DNA from: Bacteroidaceae bacterium
Lineage (GTDB): Bacteria; Bacteroidota; Bacteroidia; Bacteroidales; Bacteroidaceae
Length of the DNA: 28,643 nt
Reading direction: 5' to 3'
Assembly: GCA_017557475.1 (NCBI GenBank)
Contig: JAFYYO010000199.1
Location: forward strand, 1-28,643
Shown here: positions 701 to 23,231 of the stretch, in pieces
How the letters are laid out: each line of letters begins with the position of its first letter
Position numbering within the stretch: position 1 is the stretch's first letter
Translations under genes and position numbers: made by a program
The notes under the pieces: generated by a model
Seen by the model: only the letters and a program-made list of their open reading frames with translations
Databases searched by the model: none
Told to the model about the DNA's origin: nothing

Positions 701-2141
701 TTTGGTCCTCTTGTTCTGTCTTAATGTTCAAGCACAAGATGCAGTTCCAACTGATTCGCTTGTTCAAGACGATATCGTTCGCGTGCTTGCTATCGGCAAC
801 AGCTTCTCTCAGGATGCAGTCGAGCAGTATCTTTGGGAGTTGGCAAACGAGGCAGGCGTGAAGATGATTATAGGTAATGCTTATCGAGGAGGTCAAGGTT
901 TTCAGTCACATTGGATAGATGTTACGGAGGCGAACAACACTTTCGAGTATCGCAAAGTTGTGAATGGAAGGCGCTCAAACAGGCCTCGTTCCTCGCTTGA
1001 AAGCATTATAACTGACGAGCCTTGGGGCTACATTACCTTCCAACAAGTGAGTCAGGAGTCGGGTCTCACAGCCACGTTTGAGCCTTACCTGACCTATCTC
1101 ATTGGGTACACTCAAGGTCTGCAGACAAATCCGAATGCCCGTTATGGCTATCATCAGACGTGGGCTTACTCGCACGACAGCACTCATGGAGGTTTCGCGA
1201 ACTATGGAAATCGCCAAGAAGTCATGTATGACAGTATCTGTCAGGCAGTTAAGTATGCCCTTCAGACGCATCCTGAGTTCAGCTTTATGGTGCCAAGCGG
1301 GACTGCAATACAGAATGCGCGAACCACTTACCTTGGCGACAATATGAATCGCGACGGCTATCATCTGGATCTCAAAATGGGCAGATATACGGCGGCTTGT
1401 GCTTGGTTCGAGACGATTACGGGCATTTCGCCAGTCGGTTTCGGCTATCGGCCCGAGGGCGTCGACTTCCTTGCAGCACATACTTGTCAAGTGGCTGCGC
1501 ACGAGGCAGTTGCGCGTCCTTTCAAACAGACCGTCCTCAGTCAGGAGGGTTTCCCTGCCGTCAACAATATTGTGCCGACAGGCTTGGTGAAGCTCAACTT
1601 CGGAGGCGAGCATACCGACGACCCTACTTGGAACGATATCACGCCCTCCATCCGCACTCACACCAGCATTTTGGACAGCAATATGAATCCGACAGGCATT
1701 CTCGTGACCTTTACTGGCGAGTTTGGAGGCTCGAACAAGAATGGAGCGACCTATACGACGACCAAGATGTTGATGCCTTCCGAAGTCTCTCAGTCCGCGC
1801 TTTGGGGCTACACTACAGGTAAATTTGGAGGCGGAGGACCTCGACAGAATGCCACAATTCGCCTGAGTCATCTCAATCCGCAGCTCAAGTACGAGTTCAC
1901 TTTCTTCTCCTCTCGCGACAAATCTCAGGACTTCCGTCAGACGAGTTTCATCGTTCAGGGCGAAGACATCGAGGCCGACGATATCCAATCTGCCAATAAT
2001 TCTAAGGAAACGGCGGTAGTGAAACATGTTCGCCCAACTGCTGACGGACAAGTGACAATAACGGTAATGCCAGGCTCGTACAACACCAGTCCGAACCAGT
2101 TCTACTACTTAAATGCGATGACCATCAAGACAAAGAAATAA
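636..2141 (+). CDS. Secreted DUF4886 (SGNH-hydrolase-like) protein
   Basis: A 501-residue protein with an N-terminal signal segment (hydrophobic GGSLVLLFCLNVQA, residues ~20-33). The mature protein starts with RVLAIGNSFSQDAVEQYL; GNSFS (residues 54-58) sits where SGNH/GDSL hydrolases carry their nucleophile block I. Further on, DGYHLDLKMGRY supplies a D-x-x-H pair like block V, so a Ser-Asp-His triad is plausible. This matches DUF4886 proteins, common secreted proteins of gut Bacteroidetes often linked to carbohydrate or ester metabolism. The C-terminal ~200 residues look like a separate beta-rich domain (GILVTFTGEFGG...). The chosen start gives a charged n-region (MSKYKIINR) before the hydrophobic core. 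Part of the signal peptide is encoded by a repeat. Substrate not inferable. Confidence 0.8.
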   Translation: MSKYKIINRLLRFLPLKGVGGSLVLLFCLNVQAQDAVPTDSLVQDDIVRVLAIGNSFSQDAVEQYLWELANEAGVKMIIGNAYRGGQGFQSHWIDVTEANNTFEYRKVVNGRRSNRPRSSLESIITDEPWGYITFQQVSQESGLTATFEPYLTYLIGYTQGLQTNPNARYGYHQTWAYSHDSTHGGFANYGNRQEVMYDSICQAVKYALQTHPEFSFMVPSGTAIQNARTTYLGDNMNRDGYHLDLKMGRYTAACAWFETITGISPVGFGYRPEGVDFLAAHTCQVAAHEAVARPFKQTVLSQEGFPAVNNIVPTGLVKLNFGGEHTDDPTWNDITPSIRTHTSILDSNMNPTGILVTFTGEFGGSNKNGATYTTTKMLMPSEVSQSALWGYTTGKFGGGGPRQNATIRLSHLNPQLKYEFTFFSSRDKSQDFRQTSFIVQGEDIEADDIQSANNSKETAVVKHVRPTADGQVTITVMPGSYNTSPNQFYYLNAMTIKTKK

Positions 2142-2246
2142 ACGATCCCAGTGTAGTTGCGAAACATAACACGTTATCTTTGCCAACATAACACGTTATA
2201 ATCGTTAACATAACACGTTATGTTTGCAATTTATCCACGTTAACTT
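2141..2246. repeat. Palindrome array A (22-base period) after the DUF4886 gene
   Basis: Three clear 18-base units (2163-2180, 2185-2202, 2207-2224) start with AACATAACACGTTAT. The last is the best palindrome, AACATAACACGTTATGTT: 8-base arms around AC. Unit starts are exactly 22 apart, with 4-base spacers tgcc and cgtt. One register upstream, 2141-2158 keeps the AAC...GTT ends; one register downstream, 2229-2246 keeps CACGTTA. These look like decayed edge units. The array begins at the last base of the stop codon. Seen directly; function unknown. Confidence 0.85.
2219..2226 (+). promoter_or_regulatory. Possible -7 box inside array A
   Basis: TATGTTTG at the junction of the third unit and its spacer fits the Bacteroidetes -7 consensus TANNTTTG and faces the gene at 2307. 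A second match, TATCTTTG, lies at 2175-2182. No convincing -33 box was found at the right distance from either, so these may be chance products of the repeat word. Confidence 0.3.
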
Positions 2247-2306
2247 TTTCGACATAGTACGCCTATTGATAATCAAGAACTTAACAAATCAACAAAAATA
2301 ACACAA

Positions 2307-2810
2307 ATGGCACAACAACAAAAACAGATTCAGATTCAATTCAGGCTGATGGATGTCCGTCAGCTACAGTTCGTCAACCTCGCAAATGAATGGCCTGAAG
2401 GTGAGATGCAAATCAACAATCAGCTTCAGTTCAACTGCGAAACCGACAAGCGTATCGTTCGTTGTAACGCAAACTTCGAGTACAAGAAGAACGACATCAC
2501 TCAGCTCATCTTAGGCGTTCAAACGGTCTTCGAGTTCACTCGCGACAGTTGGAGCTCGCTCTATCAACTCAATGAAGACCAATGGGTTCTGCCAGCAGGA
2601 CTGGTTCAGCACATGGCCGACATCACTATCGGAAGTGCTCGCGGCATTATGGCAGTTCGAAGCGAGGAAGCAGGCATTCCTAAACAGATTCTGCCACTCG
2701 TTAACCCAGGTCAGATGCTGCGCAACAACATCGCCTTCAAGCGCACTCCTCAGCAGAACAACAATCCTTCTGGTCCCATTCCAATGGACGGAACTCTCGG
2801 AAACGCCTGA
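2307..2810 (+). CDS. Small cytoplasmic protein, possibly SecB-like
   Basis: 167 residues, no signal peptide, Gln-rich start (MAQQQKQIQIQF) and an Asn/Gln/Pro-rich tail (TPQQNNNPSGPIP). The middle consists of alternating predicted strands. The section from about residue 97, LPAGLVQHMADITIGSARGIM, followed by ILPLVNPGQML, resembles the end of the SecB fold, where a helix with an Ala-Arg pair and an RG turn precedes a L-x-PVN-type strand. That likeness is by eye only. A SecB-type export chaperone, or a Bacteroidetes relative of that fold, is the best guess; an uncharacterised conserved protein is the fallback. It stands alone between a palindrome array and the der promoter. Confidence 0.55.
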   Translation: MAQQQKQIQIQFRLMDVRQLQFVNLANEWPEGEMQINNQLQFNCETDKRIVRCNANFEYKKNDITQLILGVQTVFEFTRDSWSSLYQLNEDQWVLPAGLVQHMADITIGSARGIMAVRSEEAGIPKQILPLVNPGQMLRNNIAFKRTPQQNNNPSGPIPMDGTLGNA

Positions 2811-2850
2811 TTTTTCTGGACTCTTTCACATAAGTCTAAAATATTTTTCG

Positions 2851-2858
2851 TACCTTTG
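2851..2858 (+). promoter_or_regulatory. Promoter -7 box for der
   Basis: TACCTTTG matches the Bacteroidetes sigma-ABfr -7 consensus TANNTTTG, 20 bases before the der start codon. No clear TTTG-type -33 box was identified at 19-21 bases upstream. The same box (TACCTTTG) precedes tig. Confidence 0.6.
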
Positions 2859-2878
2859 TCGCGCAAAATAGATAAAGT

Positions 2879-4189
2879 ATGTCAAATATTGTAGCCATAG
2901 TGGGTCGTCCGAATGTGGGCAAAAGTACCCTCTTCAACCGCTTGACGCAGACCCGTCATGCTATTGTGAGTGAGGAAGCAGGCACGACTCGCGACCGTCA
3001 GTACGGCAAATGCGAGTGGGGCAACCGTGAGTTCTCAGTCATCGATACTGGTGGTTGGGTTGTGGGTAGCGACGATATCTTCGAGGAAGAAATCCGCAAG
3101 CAAGTCACCCTCGCTACCGATGAGGCCGACGTCATCCTCTTTCTGGTTGATATCCAGAACGGCGTCACAGACCTCGACGAGGATGTTGCGAGCATCCTTC
3201 GCCGCTCGAAGAAGCCTGTCCTGCTCGTTTGTAACAAGATGGACAACAATGAGACCTACCTCGCTGCCGAGTTTTATTCCCTCGGACTTGGCGAGCCTCA
3301 ATGCATCTCAGCTGCAACTGGAAGCGGCACAGGCGACTTGCTCGACCTCGTAGTCAGCAAGTTCCCAAAGGAAAGCGATGCTCTTCCCGACGAGGACATC
3401 CCACGTTTCGCCGTCGTTGGTCGCCCGAATGCAGGCAAGTCGAGCCTCGTCAATGCCTTTATCGGCGAGGAACGAAATATCGTGACAGACATTGCTGGTA
3501 CGACCAGAGATAGCATCTATACGCGCTACGACAAGTTCGGCTTCGACTTCTATCTCGTTGATACTGCGGGTATCCGCCGTAAGAACAGAGTGAGCGAGGA
3601 CTTGGAGTTCTACAGCGTAATGCGCTCTATTCGAAGCATAGAGAACAGCGACGTCTGCATCCTCATGATTGATGCGACCAGAGGCATCGAGTCGCAAGAC
3701 CTCAACATCTTCCAAATCATACAGAAGAACCAGAAGAGCATCGTCGTGGTCGTCAACAAATGGGACCTCGTCCCCGACAAAGACACGAAGGTCATGAAGA
3801 CCATGGAGGACGCTATTCGTGAGCGTATGGCTCCCTTCACCGACTTTCCCATCATTTTCGGCTCAGCCCTCACGAAGCAACGCATCTTCAAGGTGCTCGA
3901 GACGGCAAAGGATGTCTTCCTGAATAGGCGACGCAAAGTCTCGACGCACAAACTGAATGAGGAGATGCTGCCGCTCATCGAGGCTTATCCGCCACCATCG
4001 ATGAAGGGCAAGTACATCAAGATAAAGTACTGCATGCAGATTCCTGACACGCGCGTTCCGTCGTTTGTATTCTACGCGAACTTGCCGCAATATGTCAAGG
4101 AACCCTACAAGAGATTCCTCGAAAACAAGATTCGCGAAAGGTGGGACTTCAGCGGATGTCCGATAAATGTATTCGTTAGGCAGAAGTAA
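2879..4189 (+). CDS. der: Ribosome biogenesis GTPase Der (EngA)
   Basis: A 436-residue protein with the tandem G-domain layout unique to Der. The first P-loop is GRPNVGKST (residues 9-17) with NKMD (119-122) as base-recognition motif. The second P-loop is GRPNAGKSS (181-189), with a DTAG switch II and a later NKWD. The C-terminal ~90 residues form the KH-like domain ([16 protein letters not shown]...). Der is an essential GTPase that helps assemble the 50S ribosomal subunit in the cytoplasm. Length and motif order are normal. It has its own -7 box just upstream and is followed after 5 bases by a lipoprotein gene, so the two are probably cotranscribed. Confidence 0.97.
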
Positions 4190-4194
4190 AAGGC

Positions 4195-4578
4195 ATGAAG
4201 AAAGTCGTTGTCTGTTGTCTGTTGTCCGTTGTCTTTCTTGCTTGCTCGAAAGGTCAGATGACGCATGAAGCTGCTCAAAAGGCTGCTGAGAAGTACTATA
4301 AGATGCTCATCAAGGGCAACTACAAAGGCTTCGTCAACGGATATGCAAGTGCCGAGAATATGCCCGAGGACTTCCGCAGTCAGCTTGTCGATGCGACGGC
4401 TCAGTTCATGACAAAGGATGATATGCGTCGCCTTAAGTCGGTCAAAGCCATAAGCGACAGCCTTTTGGAGGATAGTACGGCTTATGTGATGCTGCAACTG
4501 AACTTCAGCGACAGTACAAGCGAGCAGATAGAACTGCCTCTTATCCTAATGGAGAAAGGCTGGAAGATGAAATACTAA
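4195..4578 (+). CDS. Small lipoprotein, DUF4878/NTF2-like
   Basis: 127 residues with a lipoprotein signal: MKKVVVCCLLSVVFLAC, the final Cys (residue 17) in a plausible lipobox (VFLAC). The mature part (AAQKAAEKYYKMLIKGNYKGFVNGY...) begins with a helix and continues with strands carrying LQLNFSDSTSEQIELPLILMEKGWKMKY. This is the usual pattern of DUF4878/NTF2-like lipoproteins of Bacteroidetes. Function is unknown; the fold is a small cone-shaped ligand or protein-binding domain. The signal peptide codons contain four tandem heptamers (4207-4234). It lies 5 bases after der and 12 bases before the M16 protease gene. Confidence 0.7.
   Translation: MKKVVVCCLLSVVFLACSKGQMTHEAAQKAAEKYYKMLIKGNYKGFVNGYASAENMPEDFRSQLVDATAQFMTKDDMRRLKSVKAISDSLLEDSTAYVMLQLNFSDSTSEQIELPLILMEKGWKMKY
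4207..4234 (+). repeat. Four tandem heptamers in a signal-peptide region
   Basis: Four copies of GTTGTCT (third copy GTTGTCC) in tandem, translated as part of the hydrophobic core of the lipoprotein signal. Because the unit is not a multiple of three, gain or loss of one copy would shift the frame. Confidence 0.75.
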
Positions 4579-4590
4579 ATTAAATAACAT

Positions 4591-7392: not shown

Positions 7393-7422
7393 AGATTAGG
7401 GATTAGAGAATAGAGAGGAGCT

Positions 7423-8166
7423 ATGTTTATCGCCAAGTGGTTGGCCGCTTTCGGTCGTTATCTGCAGTTGATGGGCAGGGTGCTGAGCATTCCCGAAAGG
7501 TGGAGAATGTTCATGCGGCAGTATGTCCGTGAGATGGGCTCACTTGGTGTCGACTCCATTGGCATTGTGCTTTTGATAAGCTTCTTCATTGGAGCAGTCA
7601 TCTGCATACAGATAAAGTTAAACATTCAAAGCCCGTGGATGCCGGCTTTCACTACCGGCTACACCACCAGAGAGATTATGCTGCTTGAGTTCTCCTCGAG
7701 TATCATGTGTCTCATCCTTGCCGGAAAGGTCGGCTCGAACATTGCTTCCGAGATAGGCACCATGCGTGTGACGCAGCAGATTGACGCCTTGGAGATTATG
7801 GGCGTTAACTCTGCCTCCTTCCTTATCCTACCAAAAGTGGTGGCCATGATGACGATGGTGCCCTTCCTCGTTGTGTTCAGCATCGTGGCAGGCTTTGTCG
7901 GAGCGTACGCCACAGCCATCGCGGGCATCATCACGCCTGACGATTTGACCATCGGCCTCTTGCATAGCTTCAACCAGTGGTACGTCTGGATGAGCATCAT
8001 CAAGAGTATCTTCTTCGCCTTCATCATCAGTAGTGTGTCCTCGTATTACGGCTACTTCGTGGAGGGCGGCAGTTTCGATGTGGGTAAAGCGAGCACGAAT
8101 GCTGTCGTGTCGAGCAGTATGTTGATTCTCTTCTCAGATATATTCCTAACGTCATTGTTGTCGTAA
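7423..8166 (+). CDS. mlaE: MlaE-type lipid ABC transporter permease
   Basis: 247 residues with about five to six hydrophobic segments and the MlaE family signature region EFSSSIMCLILAGKVGSNIASEIGTMRVTQQIDALEIMGVNSASFLILPKVVAMM. The IASEIGTMRVTQQIDALE segment is the coupling part that touches the ATPase. MlaE permeases move phospholipids between the inner and outer membrane leaflets together with MlaF and an MCE (MlaD) protein. One base separates its stop from the mlaF start codon, so the two are translationally linked. No mlaD/MCE gene is present in the window. Confidence 0.92.
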   Translation: MFIAKWLAAFGRYLQLMGRVLSIPERWRMFMRQYVREMGSLGVDSIGIVLLISFFIGAVICIQIKLNIQSPWMPAFTTGYTTREIMLLEFSSSIMCLILAGKVGSNIASEIGTMRVTQQIDALEIMGVNSASFLILPKVVAMMTMVPFLVVFSIVAGFVGAYATAIAGIITPDDLTIGLLHSFNQWYVWMSIIKSIFFAFIISSVSSYYGYFVEGGSFDVGKASTNAVVSSSMLILFSDIFLTSLLS

Positions 8167-8167
8167 A

Positions 8168-8944: not shown

Positions 8945-8949
8945 AGATT

Positions 8950-9741
8950 ATGGAAGAACAGGATAAATTGCAGCTCAGAAGCGAAGGTTTGGTCAAGATT
9001 TATGGCAAGCGAACCGTTGTGAACAACGTCACATTCGACGTTCATCAGGGCGAGATTGTGGGTTTGCTTGGTCCTAACGGAGCGGGCAAAACGACCTCTT
9101 TCTACATGACCACAGGCCTCGTTCTTCCCAACGACGGCCATATCTACCTGGGTGATGAGGAGATAACCGACCTTCCTGTCTATAAGCGTGCTCGCCTTGG
9201 CATCGGTTATCTTGCGCAGGAGGCCAGCGTGTTCCGTAAGATGAGCGTCGAGGACAACATAGCCAGCGTCTTGGAAATGACGGACTTGCCTCGCGAGGCT
9301 CAGCGCGAGAAGCTCGAAAGTCTTATCCAAGAGTTCCATCTCGAAAAGGTTCGCAAGAACATTGGAGACCGTTTGAGTGGTGGCGAACGACGCAGGACGG
9401 AGATTGCTCGCTGCCTTGCCATCGACCCGAAGTTCATCATGCTCGACGAACCCTTTGCCGGCGTCGACCCGATAGCTGTGGAGGACATACAGTACATCGT
9501 GTGGAAACTAAAGCAAAGGAACATAGGTGTTCTCATCACGGACCATAATGTGGAGGAAACCCTCTGCATCACCGACCGAGCTTACCTCCTGTTCGAGGGG
9601 CAGATTCTCTTCCACGGAACGCCTCAGGAACTGAGTGTCAACCCTGTTGTTCTCGACAAGTACCTGACCCGCAATTTCGTCTTGCGTTACAAGGACTTCC
9701 AGAGCATGGAGGAACAACGCGCGGAGGTCGGACAGGCATAA
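8950..9741 (+). CDS. lptB: LPS export ABC transporter ATPase LptB
   Basis: 263 residues. Walker A GPNGAGKT (41-48), signature [17 protein letters not shown] (SGGE 143-146), Walker B FIMLDEP (162-168), then the LptB hallmark [12 protein letters not shown] and the H-loop DHNVEETL. LptB hydrolyses ATP for the LptFG complex, which pulls lipopolysaccharide from the inner membrane into the Lpt bridge. The C-terminal ~25 residues ([21 protein letters not shown]) extend past the usual E. coli end. Its position directly after mlaEF puts two lipid-transport ATPases in one transcript. Array B begins right at its stop codon. Confidence 0.94.
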
Positions 9742-9756
9742 CAGGGCTAGTCGTCC

Positions 9757-9840
9757 AACTAGGCGTGGCTAGTTGGCAAACTAGACGTGCCTAATTCGCA
9801 AACTAGACGTGCCTAGTTGAGCAACTAGGCGTGCTTAGTT
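9757..9840. repeat. Palindrome array B (22-base period) after lptB
   Basis: Four 18-base units start at 9757, 9779, 9801 and 9823, exactly 22 apart. They are variants of AACTAGGCGTGCCTAGTT (8-base arms around GT); spacers are ggca, cgca and gagc. One register upstream (9735-9752) only the right arm, CTAGT, is recognisable, and that decayed unit overlaps the lptB stop codon at 9739-9741. Individual units differ from the consensus by one or two bases, mostly one arm at a time. No terminator follows before the next gene at 9897. Confidence 0.9.
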
Positions 9841-9896
9841 CAGAATCATCAAACAGAAGGAGAATTCAACACAGATAGTTAGACATACAATTAGCA

Positions 9897-10964: not shown

Positions 10965-10977
10965 AGATACCCTCCGA

Positions 10978-12484: not shown

Positions 12485-12493
12485 TAGCTCACT

Positions 12494-12505: not shown

Positions 12506-12522
12506 TTATTATATATAATGTA

Positions 12523-13194: not shown

Positions 13195-13217
13195 GGATAG
13201 GAGAATAGGGAAAAGAG

Positions 13218-14459: not shown

Positions 14460-14473
14460 TTTCTCTTAAAACA

Positions 14474-14505
14474 TTTGGTGGTTTGCGCAAAAAGATATAT
14501 CTTTG
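14474..14505 (+). promoter_or_regulatory. Promoter of recQ
   Basis: TTTG (14474-14477), a 20-base gap and TATCTTTG (14498-14505) form a good Bacteroidetes -33/-7 pair. The start codon of recQ lies 29 bases downstream of the -7 box. Confidence 0.7.
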
Positions 14506-14534
14506 TCTTTAGCATTGTTCCTAATACCACCTAA

Positions 14535-16712
14535 ATGCACGAGATTAACCTGACAGAGCACCTGAAGCATTACTTTGGCTTCGACACCTTCAAGGGAGAT
14601 CAGGAAGCGATTATCCGTAACCTTATGGAAGGGAAGGATACCTTTGTCCTGATGCCTACTGGCGGAGGTAAATCCCTTTGTTATCAGTTGCCAGCACTCT
14701 TGAGTGAAGGTACGGCCATCGTCGTCTCTCCACTCATCGCCCTTATGAAGAATCAGGTGGATGCCATTCGTCAGCAGACTGCCGACGACGGCATCGCCCA
14801 CTATCTCAACTCTTCTCTTACCAAGGCACAGATAGATGCAGCGAAGGAAGACATCGCCGCTGGTCGCACGAAGCTGTTGTATGTGGCTCCCGAGTCGCTG
14901 ACAAAGGAGGAGAACATCCGTTTCCTCCAAGGCACGAAGATATCGTTCTATGCCGTCGACGAAGCGCATTGCATATCGGAATGGGGACACGACTTTCGTC
15001 CCGAGTATCGCAACATCCGGCCACTAGTCGACCAGATCGGCAAGGCACCCATCATCGCATTGACGGCTACGGCTACCGACAAGGTGCGTACAGACATCAA
15101 GAAGAACCTCGGTATCCCTGATGCAACGGAGTTCAAGAGTTCTTTCAATCGTCCGAACCTCTACTATGAAATCCGTCCGAAGACAAAGGATGTGGACAAG
15201 GACATCACGCGTTTTGTGCTTCAGAACAAAGGCAAGAGCGGCATCATCTATTGCTTGAGTCGTCGCCGTGTTGAGGAGTTGGCGGAGATGCTCCGTACCA
15301 ATAACATCCCGGCTCGCGCTTACCATGCCGGTATGGAGTCGGTGGAAAGAGCCGAGACACAGGATGACTTCCTCATGGAGCGCATTGACGTCATCGTTGC
15401 CACCATTGCTTTCGGCATGGGCATCGACAAGCCCGACGTGCGTTACGTCATTCATTACGACATCCCCAAAAGCCTTGAGGGCTATTATCAGGAGACTGGC
15501 CGAGCCGGAAGAGATGGCGGTGAAGGCATTTGTCTCACGTTCTTCTCGCCCCATGACCTGCGCAAACTGGAGAAGTTCATGCAGGGTAAGCCTGTTGCAG
15601 AGCAGGATATCGGTCGTCAGCTTCTGCAGGAGACGGCTGCCTATGCCGAGACTTCCATCTGCCGACGCAAGTTCCTCCTGCATTATTTCGGAGAAGAGTA
15701 CGAGCCCGAGAACTGTGGCAAGTGCGACAACTGCCTGCATCCACGTGAAAGGGTGAAGGCTACGAGCGAGCTCTTGCAAGTACTCAAGGTCATCAATGCC
15801 ATCAAGGAAGGCTTCAAGACACGGCACGTCATCGACATCCTCGTGGGCAACGAGACCGACGATGTCATCGCTCATCGCCACGAACAGCTCAGCTGCTTCG
15901 GTTGCGGAGACGAGCATGAGGCTTCATATTGGAATGCTGTCATCCGCCAGGCTATGATTTCAGGATACATCGAGAAAGGCATCGAGAACTACGGCTTGCT
16001 TAGTATCACGCCGGAAGGTCGCGACTACATGAAGGCTCCGGAAGAGTTCTACGTCATGGAAGACCGCGAGTTCGACGACTTCAACGACGTGGCAGGCGAA
16101 GGCACATCTGTGCTCGACGAGACGCTCTTCGCGATGCTCAAGGATCTCAGGCGCGATGTGGCTCGCCGCAAGAACTTGCCGCCTTACGTTATCTTCCAGG
16201 ATCCGTCGCTCGAGGATATGGCGACGTCGTATCCCACGACAGTAGAGGAACTCAAGAACATCAAGGGTGTGGGCGAAGGCAAGGCAAACCGCTATGGTGC
16301 CGAGTTCTGTCAACTCATCGCTCGCTACTGCGAGGAGAACGAAATCGACCGCTTCGAGGACTTCCGCATACGCACCGTTCCCAACAAGAGCGCCGACAAG
16401 ATCAGCATCGTGCAATCTGTTGACCGTCAGGTCGACCTTGAGGAAATCGCCAAGACCAAAGGGCTTACCCTGAGCGAACTGCTCGACGAAATCTACAGCA
16501 TCGTTGACAGCGGAACCAAGCTCAACCTGGATTATTACATCCGCGAGGTCATGGATCCAGACCACATGCAAGACATCTACGACTACTTCCGCGAGGCAGA
16601 GGACAACAACATCGACGATGCGCTCGACGAGTTCGCTGAAGACGAGGACGAATACACCGAGGAAGAAATCAAACTTGTCCGCATCAAGTTCCTTGCCGAG
16701 AACGGCAACTAA
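14535..16712 (+). CDS. recQ: ATP-dependent DNA helicase RecQ
   Basis: 725 residues. Walker A TGGGKS (42-47), DEAH box (142-145), motif VI QETGRAGRDG (~319-328), and the RecQ zinc site with Cys376, Cys394, Cys397 and Cys400. A winged-helix section follows, then an HRDC-like domain (DETLFAMLKDLRRDVARRKNLPPYVIFQD..., ~530-605). The last ~100 residues carry a helical domain and a very acidic segment (DDALDEFAEDEDEYTEEE), so the protein is longer than the ~610-residue E. coli enzyme, as in other Bacteroidetes. RecQ unwinds DNA 3' to 5' in recombination and fork repair. Confidence 0.95.
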   Translation: MHEINLTEHLKHYFGFDTFKGDQEAIIRNLMEGKDTFVLMPTGGGKSLCYQLPALLSEGTAIVVSPLIALMKNQVDAIRQQTADDGIAHYLNSSLTKAQIDAAKEDIAAGRTKLLYVAPESLTKEENIRFLQGTKISFYAVDEAHCISEWGHDFRPEYRNIRPLVDQIGKAPIIALTATATDKVRTDIKKNLGIPDATEFKSSFNRPNLYYEIRPKTKDVDKDITRFVLQNKGKSGIIYCLSRRRVEELAEMLRTNNIPARAYHAGMESVERAETQDDFLMERIDVIVATIAFGMGIDKPDVRYVIHYDIPKSLEGYYQETGRAGRDGGEGICLTFFSPHDLRKLEKFMQGKPVAEQDIGRQLLQETAAYAETSICRRKFLLHYFGEEYEPENCGKCDNCLHPRERVKATSELLQVLKVINAIKEGFKTRHVIDILVGNETDDVIAHRHEQLSCFGCGDEHEASYWNAVIRQAMISGYIEKGIENYGLLSITPEGRDYMKAPEEFYVMEDREFDDFNDVAGEGTSVLDETLFAMLKDLRRDVARRKNLPPYVIFQDPSLEDMATSYPTTVEELKNIKGVGEGKANRYGAEFCQLIARYCEENEIDRFEDFRIRTVPNKSADKISIVQSVDRQVDLEEIAKTKGLTLSELLDEIYSIVDSGTKLNLDYYIREVMDPDHMQDIYDYFREAEDNNIDDALDEFAEDEDEYTEEEIKLVRIKFLAENGN

Positions 16713-16738
16713 GATTTACTAACCACATGACGTCTTAA

Positions 16739-16822
16739 AACTAGGCACGCCTAGTTGGTCAATTAGCCCTGTCTAGTTTGCGAATTAGCCACGTCTAGTT
16801 TGGCAATTAGCCCTGCCTAGTT
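16739..16822. repeat. Palindrome array C (22-base period) after recQ
   Basis: Four 18-base units start at 16739, 16761, 16783 and 16805, exactly 22 apart. The first is AACTAGGCACGCCTAGTT, perfect 8-base arms around AC; the other three are AATTAGCC-type variants that keep the CTAGTT right arm, so an RNA hairpin would keep U-G wobble pairs. Spacers are ggtc, tgcg and tggc. One register upstream (16717-16734) a decayed unit keeps ACTA, CAC and GT. The word is the same as in array B. It lies between the recQ stop and a bidirectional terminator. Confidence 0.9.
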
Positions 16823-16836
16823 TTCCGATACAAAAT

Positions 16837-16870
16837 GAGCCCTCCACAATCATGCGATTGCGAAGGGCTC
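16837..16870. terminator. Bidirectional terminator between recQ and kbl
   Basis: GAGCCCT (16837-16843) pairs with AGGGCTC (16864-16870); an inner CAATC/GATTG stem extends the hairpin. TTTT follows on the plus strand, and the A run before the left arm gives a T run on the minus strand. It would end both convergent transcripts. Confidence 0.8.
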
Positions 16871-16892
16871 TTTTCGTCTGATAACTAAGAGG

Positions 16893-18080
16893 TTACTTCA
16901 ACACGCCGAGCTCCTTGCCGACCTTTATAAATGCAGCGATGCACTTGTCGAGGTGCTCGCGCTTGTGTCCTGCGGAGAGTTGAACGCGGATGCGCGCCTC
17001 GCCCTTCGGAACGACAGGATAGTAGAAACCAGTCACATAGATGCCTTCCTCCTGCATCTTGGCGGCGAAGATCTGCGAGAGTTTTGCGTCGTAGAGCATC
17101 ACTGCGCAGATGGCGCTCTGCGTAGGCTTGATGTCGAAACCTGCAGCTATCATCTTGTCGCGGAAGTAATTGACATTCTCCACGAGACGGTCATGCAGCT
17201 CGTTCGACTCCTTGAGCATCTTGAAGACCTCAAGCGAAGCGCCGATGATGCAAGGTGCCAGAGAGTTGGAGAACAGGTATGGACGAGAGCGCTGACGCAG
17301 CAAGTCGATAATCTCCTTGCGGCCTGTTGTGAAGCCACCAAGTGCACCGCCGAAGGCTTTGCCCAGCGTGCCTGTGTAGATGTCAACGCGTCCGTAGGTA
17401 TCAGTCAGTTCGCTGACGCCGTGACCAGTCTTTCCAACGACACCTGCAGAGTGGCTTTCATCCACCATTACAAGTGCGTCGTACTTCTCTGCGAGGTCGC
17501 AAATCTTGTCCATAGGAGCGACGTTACCGTCCATTGAGAACACGCCGTCGGTCACGATGATGCGGAAACGCTGTGCCTGTGCCTCTTGCAGACACTTCTC
17601 CAGCTCTTCCATGTTGGCGTTGGCATAACGATAGCGCTTTGCCTTGCACAGGCGAACACCGTCGATGATACTGGCGTGGTTGAGGGCATCGCTGATGATG
17701 GCGTCCTCTTCAGTAAAGAGAGGTTCGAACACACCGCCGTTGGCGTCGAAGCAAGCAGCATAGAGGATGGTATCCTCAGTCTTGAAGTAGTCGCTGATGG
17801 CTGCTTCCAGTTGCTTGTGGATGTCCTGTGTGCCGCAGATGAAGCGCACGCTCGACATGCCGAAGCCGCGTTCCTGCATCATCTTCGTGGCACCCTCGAT
17901 GAGGCGGGGATGGTCGGAGAGTCCGAGGTAATTGTTGGCACAGAAGTTCAAGACTTCCTTTCCTTTTACTTGGATAGCCGCTTTCTGTGGACTTTCGATG
18001 AGGCGCTCTTCTTTGTAAAGACCTGCTTCGCGAATCTCAGTGAGCGTCTGGCTGAGATGCTGTTTCATCTTTCCGTACAT
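16893..18080 (-). CDS. kbl: 2-amino-3-ketobutyrate CoA ligase (glycine C-acetyltransferase)
   Basis: 395 residues of the alpha-oxoamine synthase family. PLP lysine is Lys241 in YTGTLGKAFGGALGG, preceded by the cofactor Asp in VMVDESHSAGVVG (~206-215). LNFCANNYLGLSDHP and the 395-398 length fit Kbl better than the KAPA or serine palmitoyl synthases. It cleaves 2-amino-3-oxobutanoate with CoA to glycine and acetyl-CoA, the second step of threonine breakdown. The first step is encoded by the SDR threonine dehydrogenase at 20879, two genes away. A -7 box lies upstream, so it can be transcribed separately from the receptor gene. Confidence 0.94.
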   Translation of the reverse strand: MYGKMKQHLSQTLTEIREAGLYKEERLIESPQKAAIQVKGKEVLNFCANNYLGLSDHPRLIEGATKMMQERGFGMSSVRFICGTQDIHKQLEAAISDYFKTEDTILYAACFDANGGVFEPLFTEEDAIISDALNHASIIDGVRLCKAKRYRYANANMEELEKCLQEAQAQRFRIIVTDGVFSMDGNVAPMDKICDLAEKYDALVMVDESHSAGVVGKTGHGVSELTDTYGRVDIYTGTLGKAFGGALGGFTTGRKEIIDLLRQRSRPYLFSNSLAPCIIGASLEVFKMLKESNELHDRLVENVNYFRDKMIAAGFDIKPTQSAICAVMLYDAKLSQIFAAKMQEEGIYVTGFYYPVVPKGEARIRVQLSAGHKREHLDKCIAAFIKVGKELGVLK

Positions 18081-18117
18081 AGATATAAGTTGTTAGGTTA
18101 ATAGGTTATTCGTTGTG

Positions 18118-18125
18118 CAAAGTTA
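18118..18125 (-). promoter_or_regulatory. Promoter -7 box for kbl
   Basis: TAACTTTG on the minus strand matches TANNTTTG, 37 bases before the kbl start codon and in the gap after the receptor gene. A T run immediately precedes it. No clear -33 box was seen. Confidence 0.55.
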
Positions 18126-18161
18126 CAAAAAAACTATGAAAAGTGTGCTACGAACGTGGAA

Positions 18162-20267
18162 TTATTTCAAATGAATGTCGATTGGAACACTGACTTTGAA
18201 GCAGAAGTTCCTGCCCATAGCTGAGATGCCTTGCCTTCCAGTGGGGCTGCTCGTGTCGATATACTTCAGTCGGGAGAGGTGCGGCTGATAGCTCTTGTCC
18301 AATAGGTTCTGGCAGGAAAGGGTGAGTTCGATGCAGTTGTGACCGAAGATGTGCAGGTCCATGCCCGCAGAGAGGTTGAAGAGGGCATAGCTTGGAGTCG
18401 CCGTCTCGGTTTCATCGACTGCATAGAAGTGGTTCTGTCGCAGGTTGTATTCCATTCCGAAGGCAAGGAAAGTGCGACGGCAATGTCCTTTTGCGAAGTC
18501 CGGGAACTCGTAGCGAATGTCGCTCGTCCACTTCGGAGCAGGCATCATGGGCAGGTTCTTTGCTTCTTCCGGCTGATGAAGTTGAACGCCACAAACGTAG
18601 CTGAAGGCATTCTCGAAGTGGAGCGGATTGAAAGGATGTACGTCAATCGAGACCTCGCCGCCCATCAACCTTGCATCTCCTTGACGATATTGATAGGTAC
18701 GATAGCCGTCTGTCTCATAGGGAAGGCGAGCGAGGAAGATGTAGTCGTCAATCCAATTTGAGAAGAGCGACGCTTGAAGATTGACATAATGGGACGTATA
18801 GTCGAGTCCCAAATCAAGTTGCATACTCTTCTCAGGCTTGAGTCCACCATTGCCCAACTCGTATTGTATGCTGCCTTCATGCACGCCGTTCGAGGAAAGT
18901 TCGCTGACCGTAGGAGCTCGGAAGCCACGAGCCGCATTCAGACGAAGGTTGAGATGGTCGGTCACATTCCATACTGTACCCAGGCTCCCAGTTACGCCTG
19001 TGAAGTTCTTGCTCAAGGCCTCGAAGCGCAGCTCGCCATCCTCAATGAGGGAGGAAGTATTGAGGTGTCGGTTGTCGAAGCGTGCTCCGCCGGAGAAATG
19101 CCAATTCTTCAATTGCCATTCAGCCGTTGCGAAGAGGCCGATGTCGAAGAGGTGATGGTCGGGGATGAGGTACTCTTCGCCCTGATTAATGTTCCTTTGC
19201 CACATGCCGCCGATGCCTGTCGCAATCTTCCAGTCGTGAGGAAGTGTGTGGAGGTACTTGATGTCGTAGTTGACGGTATGCAGTCGCATAGCCAACTCGG
19301 CTTCCTCTTCCTCCTCGAACTCGCGGCGATAGTTCTGCTGATAACCAATGATGGCCTTCAGCGTGCCGTCGCCAAAGTACCAGGCATTGTCGCTGACGGC
19401 CTTGGTGTGAAGCACTTTTTGGAAAGGCGAAACGATGCTATAGCTCTTTCCATCGAAGTCTTCGCCCACCATTTCGCCTTCTGTGATGCCTGGCGTGAAG
19501 TTGACTCTCGAGAAGCGAAGCCAGGAATGTCCCCAGCTCCTGTTGATTCCGAACATGCCCTGAACATCGCGTTCCTTGAAGAAAGAGCCAGGTACATAGC
19601 CATCCACCTTGTTCTTGTAGCAGTGCGCGGCTTTGTCGAGGAAGTGCCAATTCCAGAGCCATCCGTCGATGTTGCCTGCAAAGCCGACCCGATAATCGTA
19701 GAGTCCGTTGTTCGTCTGGTATTGGCTTCCGACCTTTACCTGCATCGTGCCGTCTTCAAGAGGGTTCTCGGGATGCAGAATCATCACACCTGCGATGGCG
19801 TCGCTGCCGTACATGAGAGAAGCCGGACCTTTGAGAACTTCCACAGAATGCACTCCTTCCTCGTCGACTTCGAGTCCATGCTCGTCGCCCCATTGCTGTC
19901 CTTCCTGACGTATTCCCTGGTCAACGACGACAACTCGATTGTAGCCGAGACCTCGGATGACTGGCTTCGAGATGCCTGTTCCCGTACTTATCTGGGAGAG
20001 ACCGGGCAGGTGACCGACGGCATCGACGATGTTCGTGCCAATAGTAGCGTGCAGTTGTTTGGGCGAGACCACCATGAAGGGAGAGGCCGCATCCTTGAGT
20101 CTTTGTACGCCAGCAATGCCTTGAACGGTCACTTCGCTCAGGATGGCTTCCTTCATGGGGTTGATACTATCTTCCAGACAATCGCTGTGTTCGTGCACAT
20201 GTTGTGCAAAAATAGGTTGGGAAACTGCCAAAAGGCAGAGACTTATATATATAATAATGTGTTTCAT
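18162..20267 (-). CDS. TonB-dependent outer-membrane receptor, probably for a metal
   Basis: 701 residues with a signal peptide (MKHIIIYISLCLLAVSQPIFAQ). The plug domain follows (ASPFMVVSPKQLHATIGTNIVDAVGHLPGL..., PVIRGLGYNRVVVVDQGIRQEG, VEVLKGPASLMYGSDAIAGVM), then a ~550-residue beta-barrel ending in an aromatic-containing strand. No SusC-type CarboxypepD_reg domain precedes the plug. The mature N-terminus HVHEHSDC is His/Cys-rich, and the preceding gene encodes a Cys/His-rich membrane protein; both suggest zinc or copper uptake. That substrate is inference. The length (~700) fits ZnuD/OprC-like receptors better than siderophore receptors with signalling domains. Confidence 0.88.
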   Translation of the reverse strand: MKHIIIYISLCLLAVSQPIFAQHVHEHSDCLEDSINPMKEAILSEVTVQGIAGVQRLKDAASPFMVVSPKQLHATIGTNIVDAVGHLPGLSQISTGTGISKPVIRGLGYNRVVVVDQGIRQEGQQWGDEHGLEVDEEGVHSVEVLKGPASLMYGSDAIAGVMILHPENPLEDGTMQVKVGSQYQTNNGLYDYRVGFAGNIDGWLWNWHFLDKAAHCYKNKVDGYVPGSFFKERDVQGMFGINRSWGHSWLRFSRVNFTPGITEGEMVGEDFDGKSYSIVSPFQKVLHTKAVSDNAWYFGDGTLKAIIGYQQNYRREFEEEEEAELAMRLHTVNYDIKYLHTLPHDWKIATGIGGMWQRNINQGEEYLIPDHHLFDIGLFATAEWQLKNWHFSGGARFDNRHLNTSSLIEDGELRFEALSKNFTGVTGSLGTVWNVTDHLNLRLNAARGFRAPTVSELSSNGVHEGSIQYELGNGGLKPEKSMQLDLGLDYTSHYVNLQASLFSNWIDDYIFLARLPYETDGYRTYQYRQGDARLMGGEVSIDVHPFNPLHFENAFSYVCGVQLHQPEEAKNLPMMPAPKWTSDIRYEFPDFAKGHCRRTFLAFGMEYNLRQNHFYAVDETETATPSYALFNLSAGMDLHIFGHNCIELTLSCQNLLDKSYQPHLSRLKYIDTSSPTGRQGISAMGRNFCFKVSVPIDIHLK

Positions 20268-20374
20268 ATTGGGTTGTATGATGAATTATAATGTGTCCTC
20301 CGCTGCGCATACCAAGGTGTGGCAGTCTGGTTATTATTAATAAAGATGTAAAAAGCTCTTAGCCTTTTTCACTC

Positions 20375-20719
20375 TTAAGCAGTCGGGGGAGCACGAAGAC
20401 TGATGAATCCCGTGTTCGTCGGGCAAGTCAGCTGACGAAGTTGGGCATAAATGACCTTGCGTTTCGGCTGATAACAAAGCAGCGCTCCTATGGGTGTTGC
20501 CACATAGGTCAACGTGAGGATCTGACAAAGCACACATTGGTGCAACCCATCTGAAAGCTGTGTCAGATGGCCGTGGCATTGGTGGCTGACACACTCGGCA
20601 CATTCCGCCACTCCTTCCTGCGATGTTTCATGGATATGGAGCGACGAAAAGAGGAGCATCGGCACGTAGATCGCCAGCAGCACCCACGAAGCAATTTGTC
20701 TCTTTGTCATCACGTTCAT
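20375..20719 (-). CDS. Small Cys/His-rich membrane protein
   Basis: 114 residues. An N-terminal hydrophobic helix (IASWVLLAIYVPMLLFSSL, ~9-27) is followed by a segment dense in metal ligands: HIHE (28-31), Cys40, Cys43, Cys48, His49, His51, His60, Cys62 and Cys65, the last two in HQCVLCQ. A second hydrophobic stretch (ILTLTYVATPIGALLC) follows. Similar small proteins often precede TonB-dependent receptors in Bacteroidetes, some resembling DUF2946. It probably binds or senses a metal at the inner membrane. The first Met is almost on the predicted transcription start, so Met4 (base 20710) may be the real start. The receptor gene lies 107 bases downstream on the same strand. Confidence 0.65.
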   Translation of the reverse strand: MNVMTKRQIASWVLLAIYVPMLLFSSLHIHETSQEGVAECAECVSHQCHGHLTQLSDGLHQCVLCQILTLTYVATPIGALLCYQPKRKVIYAQLRQLTCPTNTGFISLRAPPTA

Positions 20720-20724
20720 TGGTG

Positions 20725-20732
20725 CAAAAATA
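20725..20732 (-). promoter_or_regulatory. Promoter -7 box for the Cys/His-rich protein and receptor
   Basis: TATTTTTG on the minus strand matches TANNTTTG. It ends only 5 bases before the annotated start codon, so the message would be leaderless or start at Met4 with a very short leader. Confidence 0.5.
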
Positions 20733-20803
20733 CGGCTTTTCTTTCAAACAAAAAAGCTCTTTTGACACAAAAAAGCAAGGTGATGAATGATTTCACATAA
20801 TTT

Positions 20804-20823
20804 ATACATCGTATGCGATGTAT
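20804..20823. promoter_or_regulatory. 20-base palindrome upstream of threonine dehydrogenase
   Basis: ATACATCG (20804-20811) and CGATGTAT (20816-20823) are perfect inverted 8-base arms around TATG. The palindrome ends 16 bases before the -7 box at 20840, so it covers the -33 region, a standard position for a repressor operator. TTCACA (20792-20797) and TGTGAA (20824-20829) form an outer inverted pair. Regulatory role is inference. Confidence 0.55.
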
Positions 20824-20839
20824 TGTGAATATATTTTTG

Positions 20840-20847
20840 TAATTTTG
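20840..20847 (+). promoter_or_regulatory. Promoter -7 box for threonine dehydrogenase
   Basis: TAATTTTG matches TANNTTTG, 31 bases before the start codon. The expected -33 region coincides with the 20-base palindrome and has no TTTG, which would fit a regulated or weak promoter. Confidence 0.55.
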
Positions 20848-20878
20848 CATTCGCAAAAATAAAACTAACAAATCACGA

Positions 20879-21832
20879 ATGAAAAATATTCTTATTATCG
20901 GCTCGACTGGACAGATTGGTTCGGAGCTGACGATGCATCTCAGAGGAATTTACGGTAACGAACATGTTGTGGCAGGCTACATCCCTGGAGCAGAGCCGAA
21001 AGGCGAACTCCTGGAAAGTGGTCCGTGTGCCCTTGCTGACGTGATTAAGGCAGAGAGTATTGCTGATGCGGTGAAGAAGTACAACATCGACACCATCTAC
21101 AACCTCGCGGCTCTCCTGTCGGTTGTGGCAGAGTCGAAGCCTCGTCTGGCTTGGAACATCGGCATCGACGGCCTGTGGAACATCCTGGAGATTGCTCGCG
21201 AGAATGGGTGCGCAGTGTTCACTCCTAGCTCTATCGGCTCGTTTGGATTGGAGACGCCCCACGATATGACCCCCCAGGACACCATTCAGCGTCCACGTAC
21301 AATCTACGGCGTGTCGAAGGTCACGACTGAACTGCTGAGCGACTGGTACTTCCATAAGTATGGTGTCGATACGCGCAGTGTTCGCTTCCCAGGCATCATC
21401 TCTTACGTCACACCTCCAGGCGGAGGCACTACCGACTATGCAGTTGATATCTACTACTACGCTGTTCGTGGTGAACGCTTCACTTGTCCCATCAAGGCCG
21501 GAACACACATGGACATGATGTATATGCCGGATGCCTTGCACGCGGCTACAATGTTGATGGAGGCTGACCCGACGCGTCTGAAGCATCGCAACGGCTTCAA
21601 CATCGCCGCTATGAGTTTCGATCCCGAAATGATATACCAGAACATCAAGAAGTACAAGCCGGAGTTCGAGATGGTCTATGATGTCGATCCCTTGAAACAA
21701 TCGATAGCAGAGTCTTGGCCCAACCTGATGGACGACAGCTGTGCACGTCAAGAGTGGGACTGGAAGCATCAGTATGGCCTCGACGAGATGACGAAGGACA
21801 TGCTCGACAAACTGGCTAAGAAACTTCTGTAA
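20879..21832 (+). CDS. L-threonine 3-dehydrogenase, SDR (epimerase-like) type
   Basis: 317 residues with an N-terminal Rossmann motif GSTGQIG (8-14) and the extended-SDR catalytic residues Ser118, Tyr143 and Lys147 (YGVSK). Downstream blocks PGGGTTDYAV, MDMMYMPDAL, FNIAAMSF and DPLKQSIAESWP match those of vertebrate TDH and the Flavobacterium-type threonine dehydrogenase, and set it apart from sugar epimerases. It oxidises threonine to 2-amino-3-oxobutanoate with NAD+, the substrate of Kbl encoded nearby. General annotation pipelines often label it only as NAD-dependent epimerase/dehydratase. It has its own promoter and probable operator, and ends at a strong terminator. Confidence 0.88.
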   Translation: MKNILIIGSTGQIGSELTMHLRGIYGNEHVVAGYIPGAEPKGELLESGPCALADVIKAESIADAVKKYNIDTIYNLAALLSVVAESKPRLAWNIGIDGLWNILEIARENGCAVFTPSSIGSFGLETPHDMTPQDTIQRPRTIYGVSKVTTELLSDWYFHKYGVDTRSVRFPGIISYVTPPGGGTTDYAVDIYYYAVRGERFTCPIKAGTHMDMMYMPDALHAATMLMEADPTRLKHRNGFNIAAMSFDPEMIYQNIKKYKPEFEMVYDVDPLKQSIAESWPNLMDDSCARQEWDWKHQYGLDEMTKDMLDKLAKKLL

Positions 21833-21867
21833 GCGAGATACTTAGTTTCTCAGCAAGACTAATAAGC

Positions 21868-21909
21868 AATAAGAGCGTGCCGCGTCAGAAAACGTAGCAC
21901 GCTCTTATT
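21868..21909. terminator. Bidirectional terminator between threonine dehydrogenase and lpdA
   Basis: AATAAGAGCGTGC (21868-21880) and GCACGCTCTTATT (21897-21909) form a perfect 13-base-pair stem with a 16-base loop. The A/T-rich stem base serves as T tract in both directions. It separates two convergent genes. Confidence 0.85.
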
Positions 21910-21912
21910 ATA

Positions 21913-21996
21913 AACGACACACGTGATGTTGCCCAACGACACACGTGAAGTTCCTCAACGACACACGTGTCGTTTGCCAACGACGCTGCAGTCGTT
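21913..21996. repeat. Palindrome array D (22-base period) after lpdA
   Basis: Four 18-base units start at 21913, 21935, 21957 and 21979, exactly 22 apart. The best is AACGACACACGTGTCGTT (21957-21974), perfect 8-base arms around AC. The first two keep the left arm but have decayed right arms; the fourth, AACGACGCTGCAGTCGTT, has a different centre. Spacers are gccc, cctc and tgcc. The last base of the array touches the lpdA stop codon (21997-21999, minus), and the terminator hairpin lies 3 bases beyond the other end, so the array fills the whole 3' untranslated region of the glycine cleavage operon. Confidence 0.9.
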
Positions 21997-23217: not shown

Positions 23218-23231
23218 AGTGTTCTTTTTGC

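What the first reader, a model, noticed from the sequence alone, without database searches (positions are those of the whole stretch)
2141..21996. Arrays with one fixed geometry and locus-specific palindromic words
Four separate intergenic regions (2141-2246, 9757-9840, 16739-16822, 21913-21996) share the same build: 18-base imperfect palindromes, 4-base spacers, exact 22-base period, three to four good units each plus decayed edge units in register. The frame is AAC-N4-C-(AC or GT)-G-N4-GTT in the best units. The inner word differs: AACATAAC, AACTAGGC, AACGACAC arms, each with its complementary partner. A change of word at both arms together implies selection or a copying process that keeps the dyad. 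In RNA each best unit would fold as a 7-base-pair hairpin with a CACG or CGUG tetraloop. Spacers such as TGCC/GGCA make the GTT-spacer-AAC junction near-symmetric too, giving a dyad about every 11 bases, close to one helical turn. All four lie directly after a stop codon or in a 3' untranslated region. Ordinary REP elements share sequence between loci; these share geometry. I know of no named family with this description. Candidate roles: phased sites for a dimeric protein, 3' mRNA hairpin arrays, or a slippage and template-switch product with a recognised frame.
Basis: partly seen in the sequence, partly recalled or inferred. Interest (0 to 1): 0.88.

Follow-up and report, generated by a model that had tools for sequence, protein, structure and literature searches.

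The report
Fixed-geometry repeat arrays with changing words
A group of gut bacteria carries dozens of short DNA arrays after genes, all built on the same exact 22-base ruler, while the letters written on that ruler change from species to species, in some species at several sites together.

Summary
The four window arrays belong to a class found at about one array per 15 kb in sampled stretches of three relatives (122 in 1.84 Mb; 1-3 at periods 21, 23 or 25; 2 in Markov sequence). The peak at 22 also holds when palindromy is not used for detection.

Positions 4-7 of the 18-mer carry almost no base preference yet pair 0.63-0.77. RNA hairpins are disfavoured: in gene direction G-T and A-C mismatches are 95 and 99, with no strand bias or consistent T-tract. 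If one arm is a word known from another locus of the genome, a differing second arm is too in 0.41-0.82 of cases (control 0.04-0.28): the half-site looks like the evolving unit.

Arrays persist at orthologous 3' ends with recognisable edge units while interior words change. Words are shared between different sites of one species, but G033 and G014 carry most of this.

High abundance is limited to part of one genus. Y1 transposases do not track it. I favour phased dsDNA half-site arrays read by an unknown protein; a selfish satellite is the main rival.

The parts
2141..2246 (.). Array 1: units at 2141 (decayed edge), 2163, 2185, 2207, 2229 (decayed edge); word AACATAAC; begins at the stop codon of the gene 636-2141
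9757..9840 (.). Array 2: units at 9757, 9779, 9801, 9823; words AACTAGGC/AACTAGAC; begins 15 nt after the stop of the ABC-type ATPase gene 8950-9741 (called lptB here as a label, recalled)
16739..16822 (.). Array 3: units at 16739, 16761, 16783, 16805; words AACTAGGC/AATTAGCC; between the convergent genes 14535-16712 (recQ-like) and 16893-18080 (kbl-like; labels recalled)
21913..21996 (.). Array 4: units at 21913, 21935, 21957, 21979 (edge unit with CTGC core); word AACGACAC; between the convergent ORFs 20879-21832 and 21997-23307
16837..16870 (-). Terminator-like hairpin (15 pairs) of the gene 16893-18080, lying between that gene and array 3, so that array 3 is additional to it

Best explanation
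The arrays are double-stranded DNA lattices. Each 22-bp unit is two 11-bp half-modules in opposite orientation, so a dyad falls every 11 bp, about one helical turn. Each half-module carries an 8-base half-site, commonly of the form AA-NNNNN-C, next to an R|Y centre. I infer that dimers or oligomers of a DNA-binding protein, or of a small set of paralogues, read the half-sites cooperatively along one face of the helix, and that the arrays mark or insulate gene 3' ends and convergent boundaries. Half-sites come from the genome's current vocabulary. When the vocabulary shifts, interior units of arrays at orthologous sites are replaced in whole 22-bp steps while edge units change more slowly. Shown: fixed period, symmetry without strand or wobble bias, reuse of half-sites, persistence at orthologous 3' ends, 3' location, and a species-wide word in G033 and G014.
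For: Exact 22: palindromic segments 122 at period 22 versus 3, 3 and 1 at 21, 23 and 25 in 1.84 Mb; TRF without a palindrome criterion 37+87+68 at 22 versus 10+4+4 at 21 and 2+1+1 at 23, palindromy 5.3-5.8 of 8 versus 4.0-4.1 column-permuted. Unit numbers at one orthologous site differ by whole units. dsDNA level: GT 95 versus AC 99 mismatches in 57 codirectional arrays oriented by transcription; CACG 46 versus CGTG 40. Half-site vocabulary: among arm combinations found in one array only and with the left arm known from another array, the right arm is known too in 0.41-0.82 of cases, versus 0.04-0.28 with random bases at the same positions. Dialect. Position: 33, 57 and 12 arrays lie between convergent, codirectional and divergent genes; the same loci have 86, 259 and 109 such gaps of at least 80 bp; 41 of 57 codirectional arrays are nearer the upstream stop. 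Array-bearing 3' ends: 7 of 10 genomes at the lptB-like site and 12 of 15 at the second site.
Against: No protein was identified. A single protein of fixed specificity cannot read so many words, so several readers or a very plastic one are needed. At least one family (ATAAG in G001) is a dispersed repeat of about 40 or more places with conserved flanks, as expected of a mobile element. Arrays are absent at some orthologous sites (kbl-like 3' end: 4 of 15 with arrays). Co-occurrence over all shared gaps in my stretches is not significant (2 both, 12 one only, 47 none, p = 0.27). Without G033 and G014 the dialect effect is small (0.086 versus 0.055 expected, 69 of 3000 permutations as high) and below the likeness of one site across species (0.158); also without the window it is not significant (423 of 3000).
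Confidence: 0.42

Rival explanations
1. Selfish bacterial satellite. The arrays have no cellular role. They spread and homogenise by ectopic conversion or by an unknown enzyme that adds or exchanges DNA in 22-bp quanta; gene 3' ends are only where insertion is tolerated.
For: G001 ATAAG element: about 40 places (40 of 133 candidates scored) in one genome, weak matches in 2 of 10 relatives, with conserved flanks. In-register modules of three AATT-joined units inside AAC arrays. Patchy spread in the genus. The 3' preference also fits tolerance. Co-occurrence of arrays at shared gaps is not significant.
Against: At two 3' ends arrays occur in most genomes examined, at one of them with recognisable edge units, which independent insertion does not predict. 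No enzyme found: Y1-type transposases are absent at E<=0.001 from 8 of 13 array-rich genus genomes and present in array-poor ones.
Confidence: 0.36
2. Mutational by-product. Replication slippage keeps tandem copies alike and template switching between arms keeps palindromes, without selection or a dedicated machine.
For: Arms can match in different topologies: within a unit, nested across a three-unit element (nested 59 of 78 versus self 12 of 78), or left arm of unit i with right arm of unit i+1 (an array shared by L216 and L217 at the orthologous place), as fold-back copying from palindromic cores would give.
Against: Such processes act in all bacteria, but strong matches are restricted: 1 of 247 genomes sampled across the phylum at E<=1e-4, the query itself (at most 21 candidates scored per genome). 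Neutral arrays should accumulate 1-base indels, yet 21 and 23 are nearly empty. It does not explain words shared between unlinked sites in G033 and G014.
Confidence: 0.15
3. RNA structure: arrays of 3' untranslated hairpins that stabilise or terminate transcripts.
For: 3' position; predicted folds somewhat more stable than shuffles, z -1.5 to -4.0; strong pair covariation.
Against: No excess of G-U over A-C in the transcribed strand, no core strand bias and no consistent T-tract, single-unit hairpins are not the predicted folds, a separate terminator-like hairpin lies beside array 3, some arrays have poorly complementary arms at fixed spacing (G057 and G026), and no Rfam match in the window.
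Confidence: 0.05

Closest known systems
REP / BIME / REPIN elements
   Same: Short intergenic palindromes, high copy, often clustered, species-specific families
   Different: REP families share sequence; most sort into GTAG- or CGTC-tagged families, and GTAG ones are associated with transposase genes (abstract start and passages of PMC3733652). Here geometry is shared while words vary, and Y1-type transposases do not track the arrays.
BrickBuilt MITE of Porphyromonas gingivalis
   Same: Bacteroidales (recalled), intergenic, tandem short units (23 nt), unit-number variation between strains, leader and tail regions comparable to the flanks of the G001 ATAAG element
   Different: One sequence family with 19 loci in the reference strain, period 23, indels of 0-6 percent; inverted half-sites or several words are not described in the parts I read (passages, sections 5 and 8 of PMC4596501).
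Eukaryotic satellite DNA (centromeric)
   Same: Monomer length kept while sequence turns over and is homogenised within a species
   Different: Here dispersed at many intergenic sites in a bacterium, in very short arrays; analogy only, from general knowledge and one abstract start (PMC8122249).
CRISPR arrays
   Same: Regularly spaced, partly palindromic repeats
   Different: The spacers are 4 bases and recur, and neighbouring units vary in the repeat itself.

Membership tests
REP / BIME / REPIN | Members of a family share sequence across loci | tested here: inconclusive
   Words recur within a genome, but by reading at least a dozen unrelated words share one geometry, and words at one site differ between species
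REP / BIME / REPIN | GTAG or CGTC tag at one end | tested here: inconclusive
   Read by eye, not counted: most families have other spacers (TGCC, GGCA, TGCA, GCCC, AATT); CGTC occurs in the G001 ATAAG family and here and there elsewhere, and some units of the G002 TAGT/ACTA family contain GTAG
REP / BIME / REPIN | RAYT (Y1 transposase) in the genome | tested here: not met
   No PF01797 match at E<=0.001 in 8 of 13 array-rich genus genomes nor in G003; the genomes are draft, and CGTC-type REPs are not associated with transposases either (PMC3733652 passage)
BrickBuilt-type MITE | 23-nt direct repeats with leader, tail and terminal inverted repeats | tested here: not met
   Period 22, not 23; conserved flanks seen for one family; terminal inverted repeats not looked for systematically
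Intrinsic terminators | GC-rich hairpin followed by a T-tract in the transcription direction | tested here: not met
   T-run of 4 or more after 11 of 57 codirectional arrays; separate terminator-like hairpin next to array 3
Structured 3' UTR RNA | Wobble pairs kept in the transcribed strand | tested here: not met
   GT 95 versus AC 99
CRISPR | Near-identical repeats with unique spacers next to cas genes | tested here: not met
   4-base recurring spacers and varying repeats; cas genes not searched
Cooperative dimer-binding operators | A protein binds the dyads | not testable with these tools
   No binding data

The most novel reading that the evidence does not exclude
A bacterial protein-DNA recognition lattice with a geometric code: a fixed 11/22-bp ruler at many gene 3' ends, read by rapidly evolving DNA-binding protein(s), so that species rewrite their half-site vocabulary genome-wide while the ruler and many sites persist. 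This would be a bacterial counterpart of centromeric satellites or of fast-evolving reader-site systems.
Probability: 0.26. Interest if true: 0.95.

Novelty: categorically new. Interest (0 to 1): 0.84.

Why it matters
Bacterial repeat families are recognised by sequence. Here the conserved thing is a ruler, the letters change between species at orthologous sites, and in two species the same new word appears at every site examined. That makes concerted evolution of dispersed DNA sites in bacteria testable, points to an unknown reader or copying machine in a clade of rumen and gut Bacteroidales, and means that sequence-based repeat finders will miss such elements when species are compared.

Tried and rejected
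Y1/RAYT transposase as the driver: rejected. RNA hairpins and terminators: disfavoured. A nested whole-array hairpin: holds for the TACATGTA family (nested 59 of 78, self 12 of 78, other 57 of 156), not for the TCATGA arrays (nested 6 of 20) or the rest. In-register palindromes beyond array ends: no excess. Recurrent gene families beside arrays: clusters found, proteins not annotated, no mobiliser identified. Array co-occurrence at shared gaps: not significant, p = 0.27; the ABC-ATPase gap of G003 was missed there because its array scores 14.8 against a threshold of 15. DNA similarity: none for the array 1 region in phages and none for the array 2 region in plasmids. Rfam at gathering threshold: none in the window. 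Papers: searches gave no description of this pattern in the open-access library; subscription literature was not searched.

A mistake found on checking: I first took a four-unit block at L216:206 and L217:3897 for copies at different loci (note). L217 is held in the opposite orientation; the block is at the same orthologous place and identical over 84 bases. The confidence in the best explanation was lowered from 0.45 to 0.42 and the novel case from 0.30 to 0.26 because one search shows how far the dialect rests on two species.

Caveats. Arrays used for context, composition and vocabulary were detected by palindromy, so pairing rates are inflated; one search is the control without that choice. 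Gene calls were a longest-ORF heuristic; 15 of 125 arrays fell inside a predicted ORF and 8 at edges, and the gap counts come only from loci that hold an array. The control uses random bases, not a mutation model, and most one-array combinations with 3-5 mismatches have at least one arm not seen elsewhere. In one search some array limits were set by hand with short anchor strings, three arrays were left out (added), and the G058 array was left out of both. In one search, 15 of the 18 listed loci were examined (G040, G027 and one of two G026 pieces left out); G002, G026 and G057 fall under the palindrome threshold there, and these and G058 (partly masked) are counted by reading the 22-base repeats in the printed sequence. 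At the Der-like site, segments in G057, G040 and G019 also pass the score but look like AT-rich or unrelated sequence and were not counted. In searches over more than 40 genomes only 88, 26 or 21 candidates per genome were scored, and palindromic matches are listed on both strands.
Full report
OBSERVATION. The four arrays are at the stated places with exact 22-base period. In the window plus loci of three close relatives (L001-L003), the count of three-unit palindromic arrays is 9 at period 22 and 0 at the other periods from 18 to 40, apart from 33 (3) and 37 (2); Markov sequence gives 0.15.

SCALE. No whole genome is held for the window. RecQ relatives at 92-93 percent identity come from metagenome-assembled genomes labelled Bacteroidaceae or Bacteroidales. 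In stretches of three of them (511, 714 and 612 kb) a calibrated segment score finds 27, 55 and 40 arrays. The same score gives 3, 3 and 1 at periods 21, 23 and 25 over all three, and 2 in Markov sequence. One overlap duplicate was removed later, leaving 121 plus the 4 in the window. G004, with 76 percent RecQ identity, gives 4 in 260 kb; the 76 more distant loci (L005-L080) give 9 in 1.47 Mb, against 2 for period 23 there. Tandem Repeats Finder, blind to palindromes, finds 37, 87 and 68 arrays of period 22 against 10, 4, 4 at 21 and 2, 1, 1 at 23. Mean pairing is 5.8, 5.7 and 5.3 of 8, against 4.0, 4.1 and 4.1 in a column-permuted control. The distant set also peaks at 22 (21 arrays, against 9 at 21 and 2 at 23), so low-density relatives may be wider than the clade.

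ANATOMY. With the TACATGTA/TCATGA class excluded, positions 1-2 are A-rich, 8 is C-rich, and 9-10 are mostly R-Y. Positions 4-7 carry 0.03-0.05 bits but pair 0.63-0.77, where 0.26-0.27 is expected. On 57 three-unit segments, 84.0 percent of cells pair, against 48.8 when shuffled and 35-49 for slid partners; 452 cells have both sides changed, against 164. These rows were picked for palindromy, so the covariation is partly built in; one search is the check without that choice. Pairs of similar strong palindromes (at least 7 of 8) are mostly 22 or 44 apart: 54 pairs at 22, none at 21 or 23. Dissimilar pairs peak at 33 and 55, the second dyad 11 bp away. Terminal units have the CACG/CGTG core in 48 of 86 cases and interior units in 102 of 130 (p = 0.0005).

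WORDS. By reading, at least a dozen unrelated word families share the geometry. A class joined by AATT usually has three units (17 of 19 TACATGTA arrays, 7 of 7 TCATGA arrays). In the TACATGTA arrays unit 1 pairs with unit 3 (nested 59 of 78, self 12 of 78, other 57 of 156); in the TCATGA arrays it does not (nested 6 of 20, self 11 of 20). Mosaic arrays switch words without losing register, for example L135, L183, L119 and L124. Half-site reuse: among differing arm combinations seen in one array only, and given that the left arm is known from another array of the genome, the right arm is known too in 14 of 17 and 3 of 7 (G1), 19 of 34 and 9 of 22 (G2), 25 of 39 and 9 of 19 (G3) for 1-2 and 3-5 mismatches. 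Controls with random bases at the same positions give 0.28, 0.05, 0.24, 0.04, 0.27 and 0.09. Counted over all such combinations, with no condition on the left arm, both are known in 14 of 25, 3 of 18, 19 of 64, 9 of 65, 25 of 55 and 9 of 44. I read this as a half-site vocabulary with many rare words.

DNA, NOT RNA. Read in gene direction, 57 codirectional arrays have 95 G-T and 99 A-C mismatches. CACG and CGTG cores are 46 and 40; a T-run of 4 or more follows in 11 of 57. RNA folds of the window arrays pair across units, z -1.48, -3.41, -4.00 and -2.15. A 15-pair terminator-like hairpin lies between the 16893-18080 gene and array 3.

POSITION. Of 125 arrays, 57 lie between codirectional, 33 between convergent and 12 between divergent genes, 15 inside a predicted ORF and 8 at edges. 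Gaps of at least 80 bp in the same loci number 259, 86 and 109; a gap can hold more than one array. Codirectional arrays start a median 41 bp after the upstream stop and 41 of 57 are nearer to it.

ORTHOLOGOUS SITES. At the 3' end of the ABC ATPase gene (window array 2), arrays are present in the window, G003, G011, G014, G033, G041 (22-base core spacing, low palindrome score) and G002, and absent in G001, G026 and G057: 7 of 10. The words differ: AACTAGGC, AAGATCAC, AACTTCTGCAG, AACTTAAC, AACGCCGC and others. At the 3' end of the gene L104:13181-14884, 12 of the 15 genomes examined have 22-base arrays (G001, G002, G003, G011, G014, G018, G026, G030, G033, G041, G057 and G058); four of these twelve I count by reading the sequence, not by score. 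In most they start about 15 nt after the stop and have 3 to 7 units. First and last units are alike in many species; interior words differ. G007, G019 and G059 have none. The kbl-like 3' site (window array 3) has arrays in 4 of 15. Upstream of the Der-like gene (window array 1), the window and 5 of 14 relatives have arrays, one weak. A third site has arrays in 7 of 13 at the threshold used. Over all gene gaps shared between my stretches, co-occurrence is not significant (2 both, 12 one only, 47 none, p = 0.27).

DIALECT. Over 33 arrays at six sites in 12 genomes, mean shared 7-mers are 0.237 for different sites in one species (35 pairs), 0.119 for the same site in different species (107 pairs) and 0.063 for different sites and species (386 pairs); 0 of 5000 label shuffles within sites reach 0.237, maximum 0.186. 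With three arrays added that I had left out, the values are 0.220, 0.116 and 0.052, 0 of 3000. G033 (AACGCCGC at all four sites examined) and G014 (TTAAC/ATAAC words at all four) carry most of it: their own means are 0.579 and 0.440. G011 has 0.333 on one pair; the others lie between 0 and 0.147. Without G033 the test still gives 0 of 3000 (0.152 against 0.069). Without G033 and G014 it gives 0.086 against 0.055, 69 of 3000, and the same site across species is then more alike (0.158). Without the window as well it is not significant (0.073 against 0.055, 423 of 3000). So a genome-wide dialect is shown for two species and is open for the rest, whose genomes hold several families at once.

SPREAD. 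The covariance model finds matches at E<=0.001 in 18 of 61 sampled genus genomes, with 10 or more (both strands counted) in 13. At E<=1e-4 it finds matches in 11 of 201 sampled genomes of the family, 8 of them with 1-4 matches, and in 1 of 247 of the phylum, the query itself. First-look candidates are 569-1498 in ten array-rich genomes and 22-147 in most others; G015, G019, G058, G059 and G061 lie between, and G043 has 34 matches with only 113 candidates. Y1 transposases do not track this: 8 of the 13 have none at E<=0.001. One G001 family is a dispersed element with conserved flanks and about 40 places among the 40 of 133 candidates scored, with weak matches in 2 of 10 relatives.

INTERPRETATION. 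The lack of strand and wobble bias places the symmetry in double-stranded DNA, and half-site reuse makes the half-site, not the hairpin, the likely unit. An exact pitch kept through word changes needs either a reader that requires helical phase or a copier that works in 22-bp steps. Presence at certain 3' ends in most species with similar edge units argues against recent independent insertion; dispersed copies argue that some blocks do move. I put a phased reader first (0.42) and a selfish satellite second (0.36). Neither a reader nor a copier was found.

LITERATURE. Nine library searches gave no match to this description. The BrickBuilt paper (PMC4596501) was seen as passages and sections 5 and 8; PMC3733652 as abstract start and passages; PMC5771137 as passages; others as search listings only. 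Gene names used as labels (lptB, recQ, kbl, Der) are recalled from the protein sequences; no family search of window proteins was run.

Noticed in passing
L210, L212, L218 (3' end of the kbl-like gene in G057, G033, G019): Other tandem hairpin repeats of about 45-50 bp include a copy of the end of the gene (such as GGCGTGCTGAAGTAA) together with GCACGCCAAGG...CCTTGCGGCGTGC.
   Followed up: no
L216:206 and L217:3897 (G018 and G030): A four-unit GGTTAACC array, identical over 84 bases at the same orthologous place, in which the left arm of unit i matches the right arm of unit i+1; the nearby kbl-like 3' array differs by one unit between the two species.
   Followed up: partly
L133:8-205 (G002 contig 5 start): A nine-unit array of about 198 bp reads as one nearly perfect long inverted repeat around a three-unit TACATGTA block; it lies at a contig end, so an assembly artefact is possible.
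   Followed up: no
L185:18491 and L189:18580: At one orthologous site G002 and G003 both have the three-unit AATT-joined build but with different words (GCA-NN-TACATGTA and AAAT-NN-TCATGA).
   Followed up: partly
L316 (G058): 22-base repeats with the word AAGAGCCTAGCTCTT follow the L104-gene orthologue, next to a masked stretch.
   Followed up: no
L005-L080: Tandem repeats of period 22 are in excess over 21 and 23 in these more distant loci too, several with short palindromes such as ATTCCCACCCTGGGA.
   Followed up: no
window 23233-23257, 23317-23355, 27731-27767, 27830-27858: 9-base repeats GGAGTTAAA and their inverted form (CTTTAACTC, TAACTCCTT) lie in or near two gaps between minus-strand genes.
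   Followed up: no
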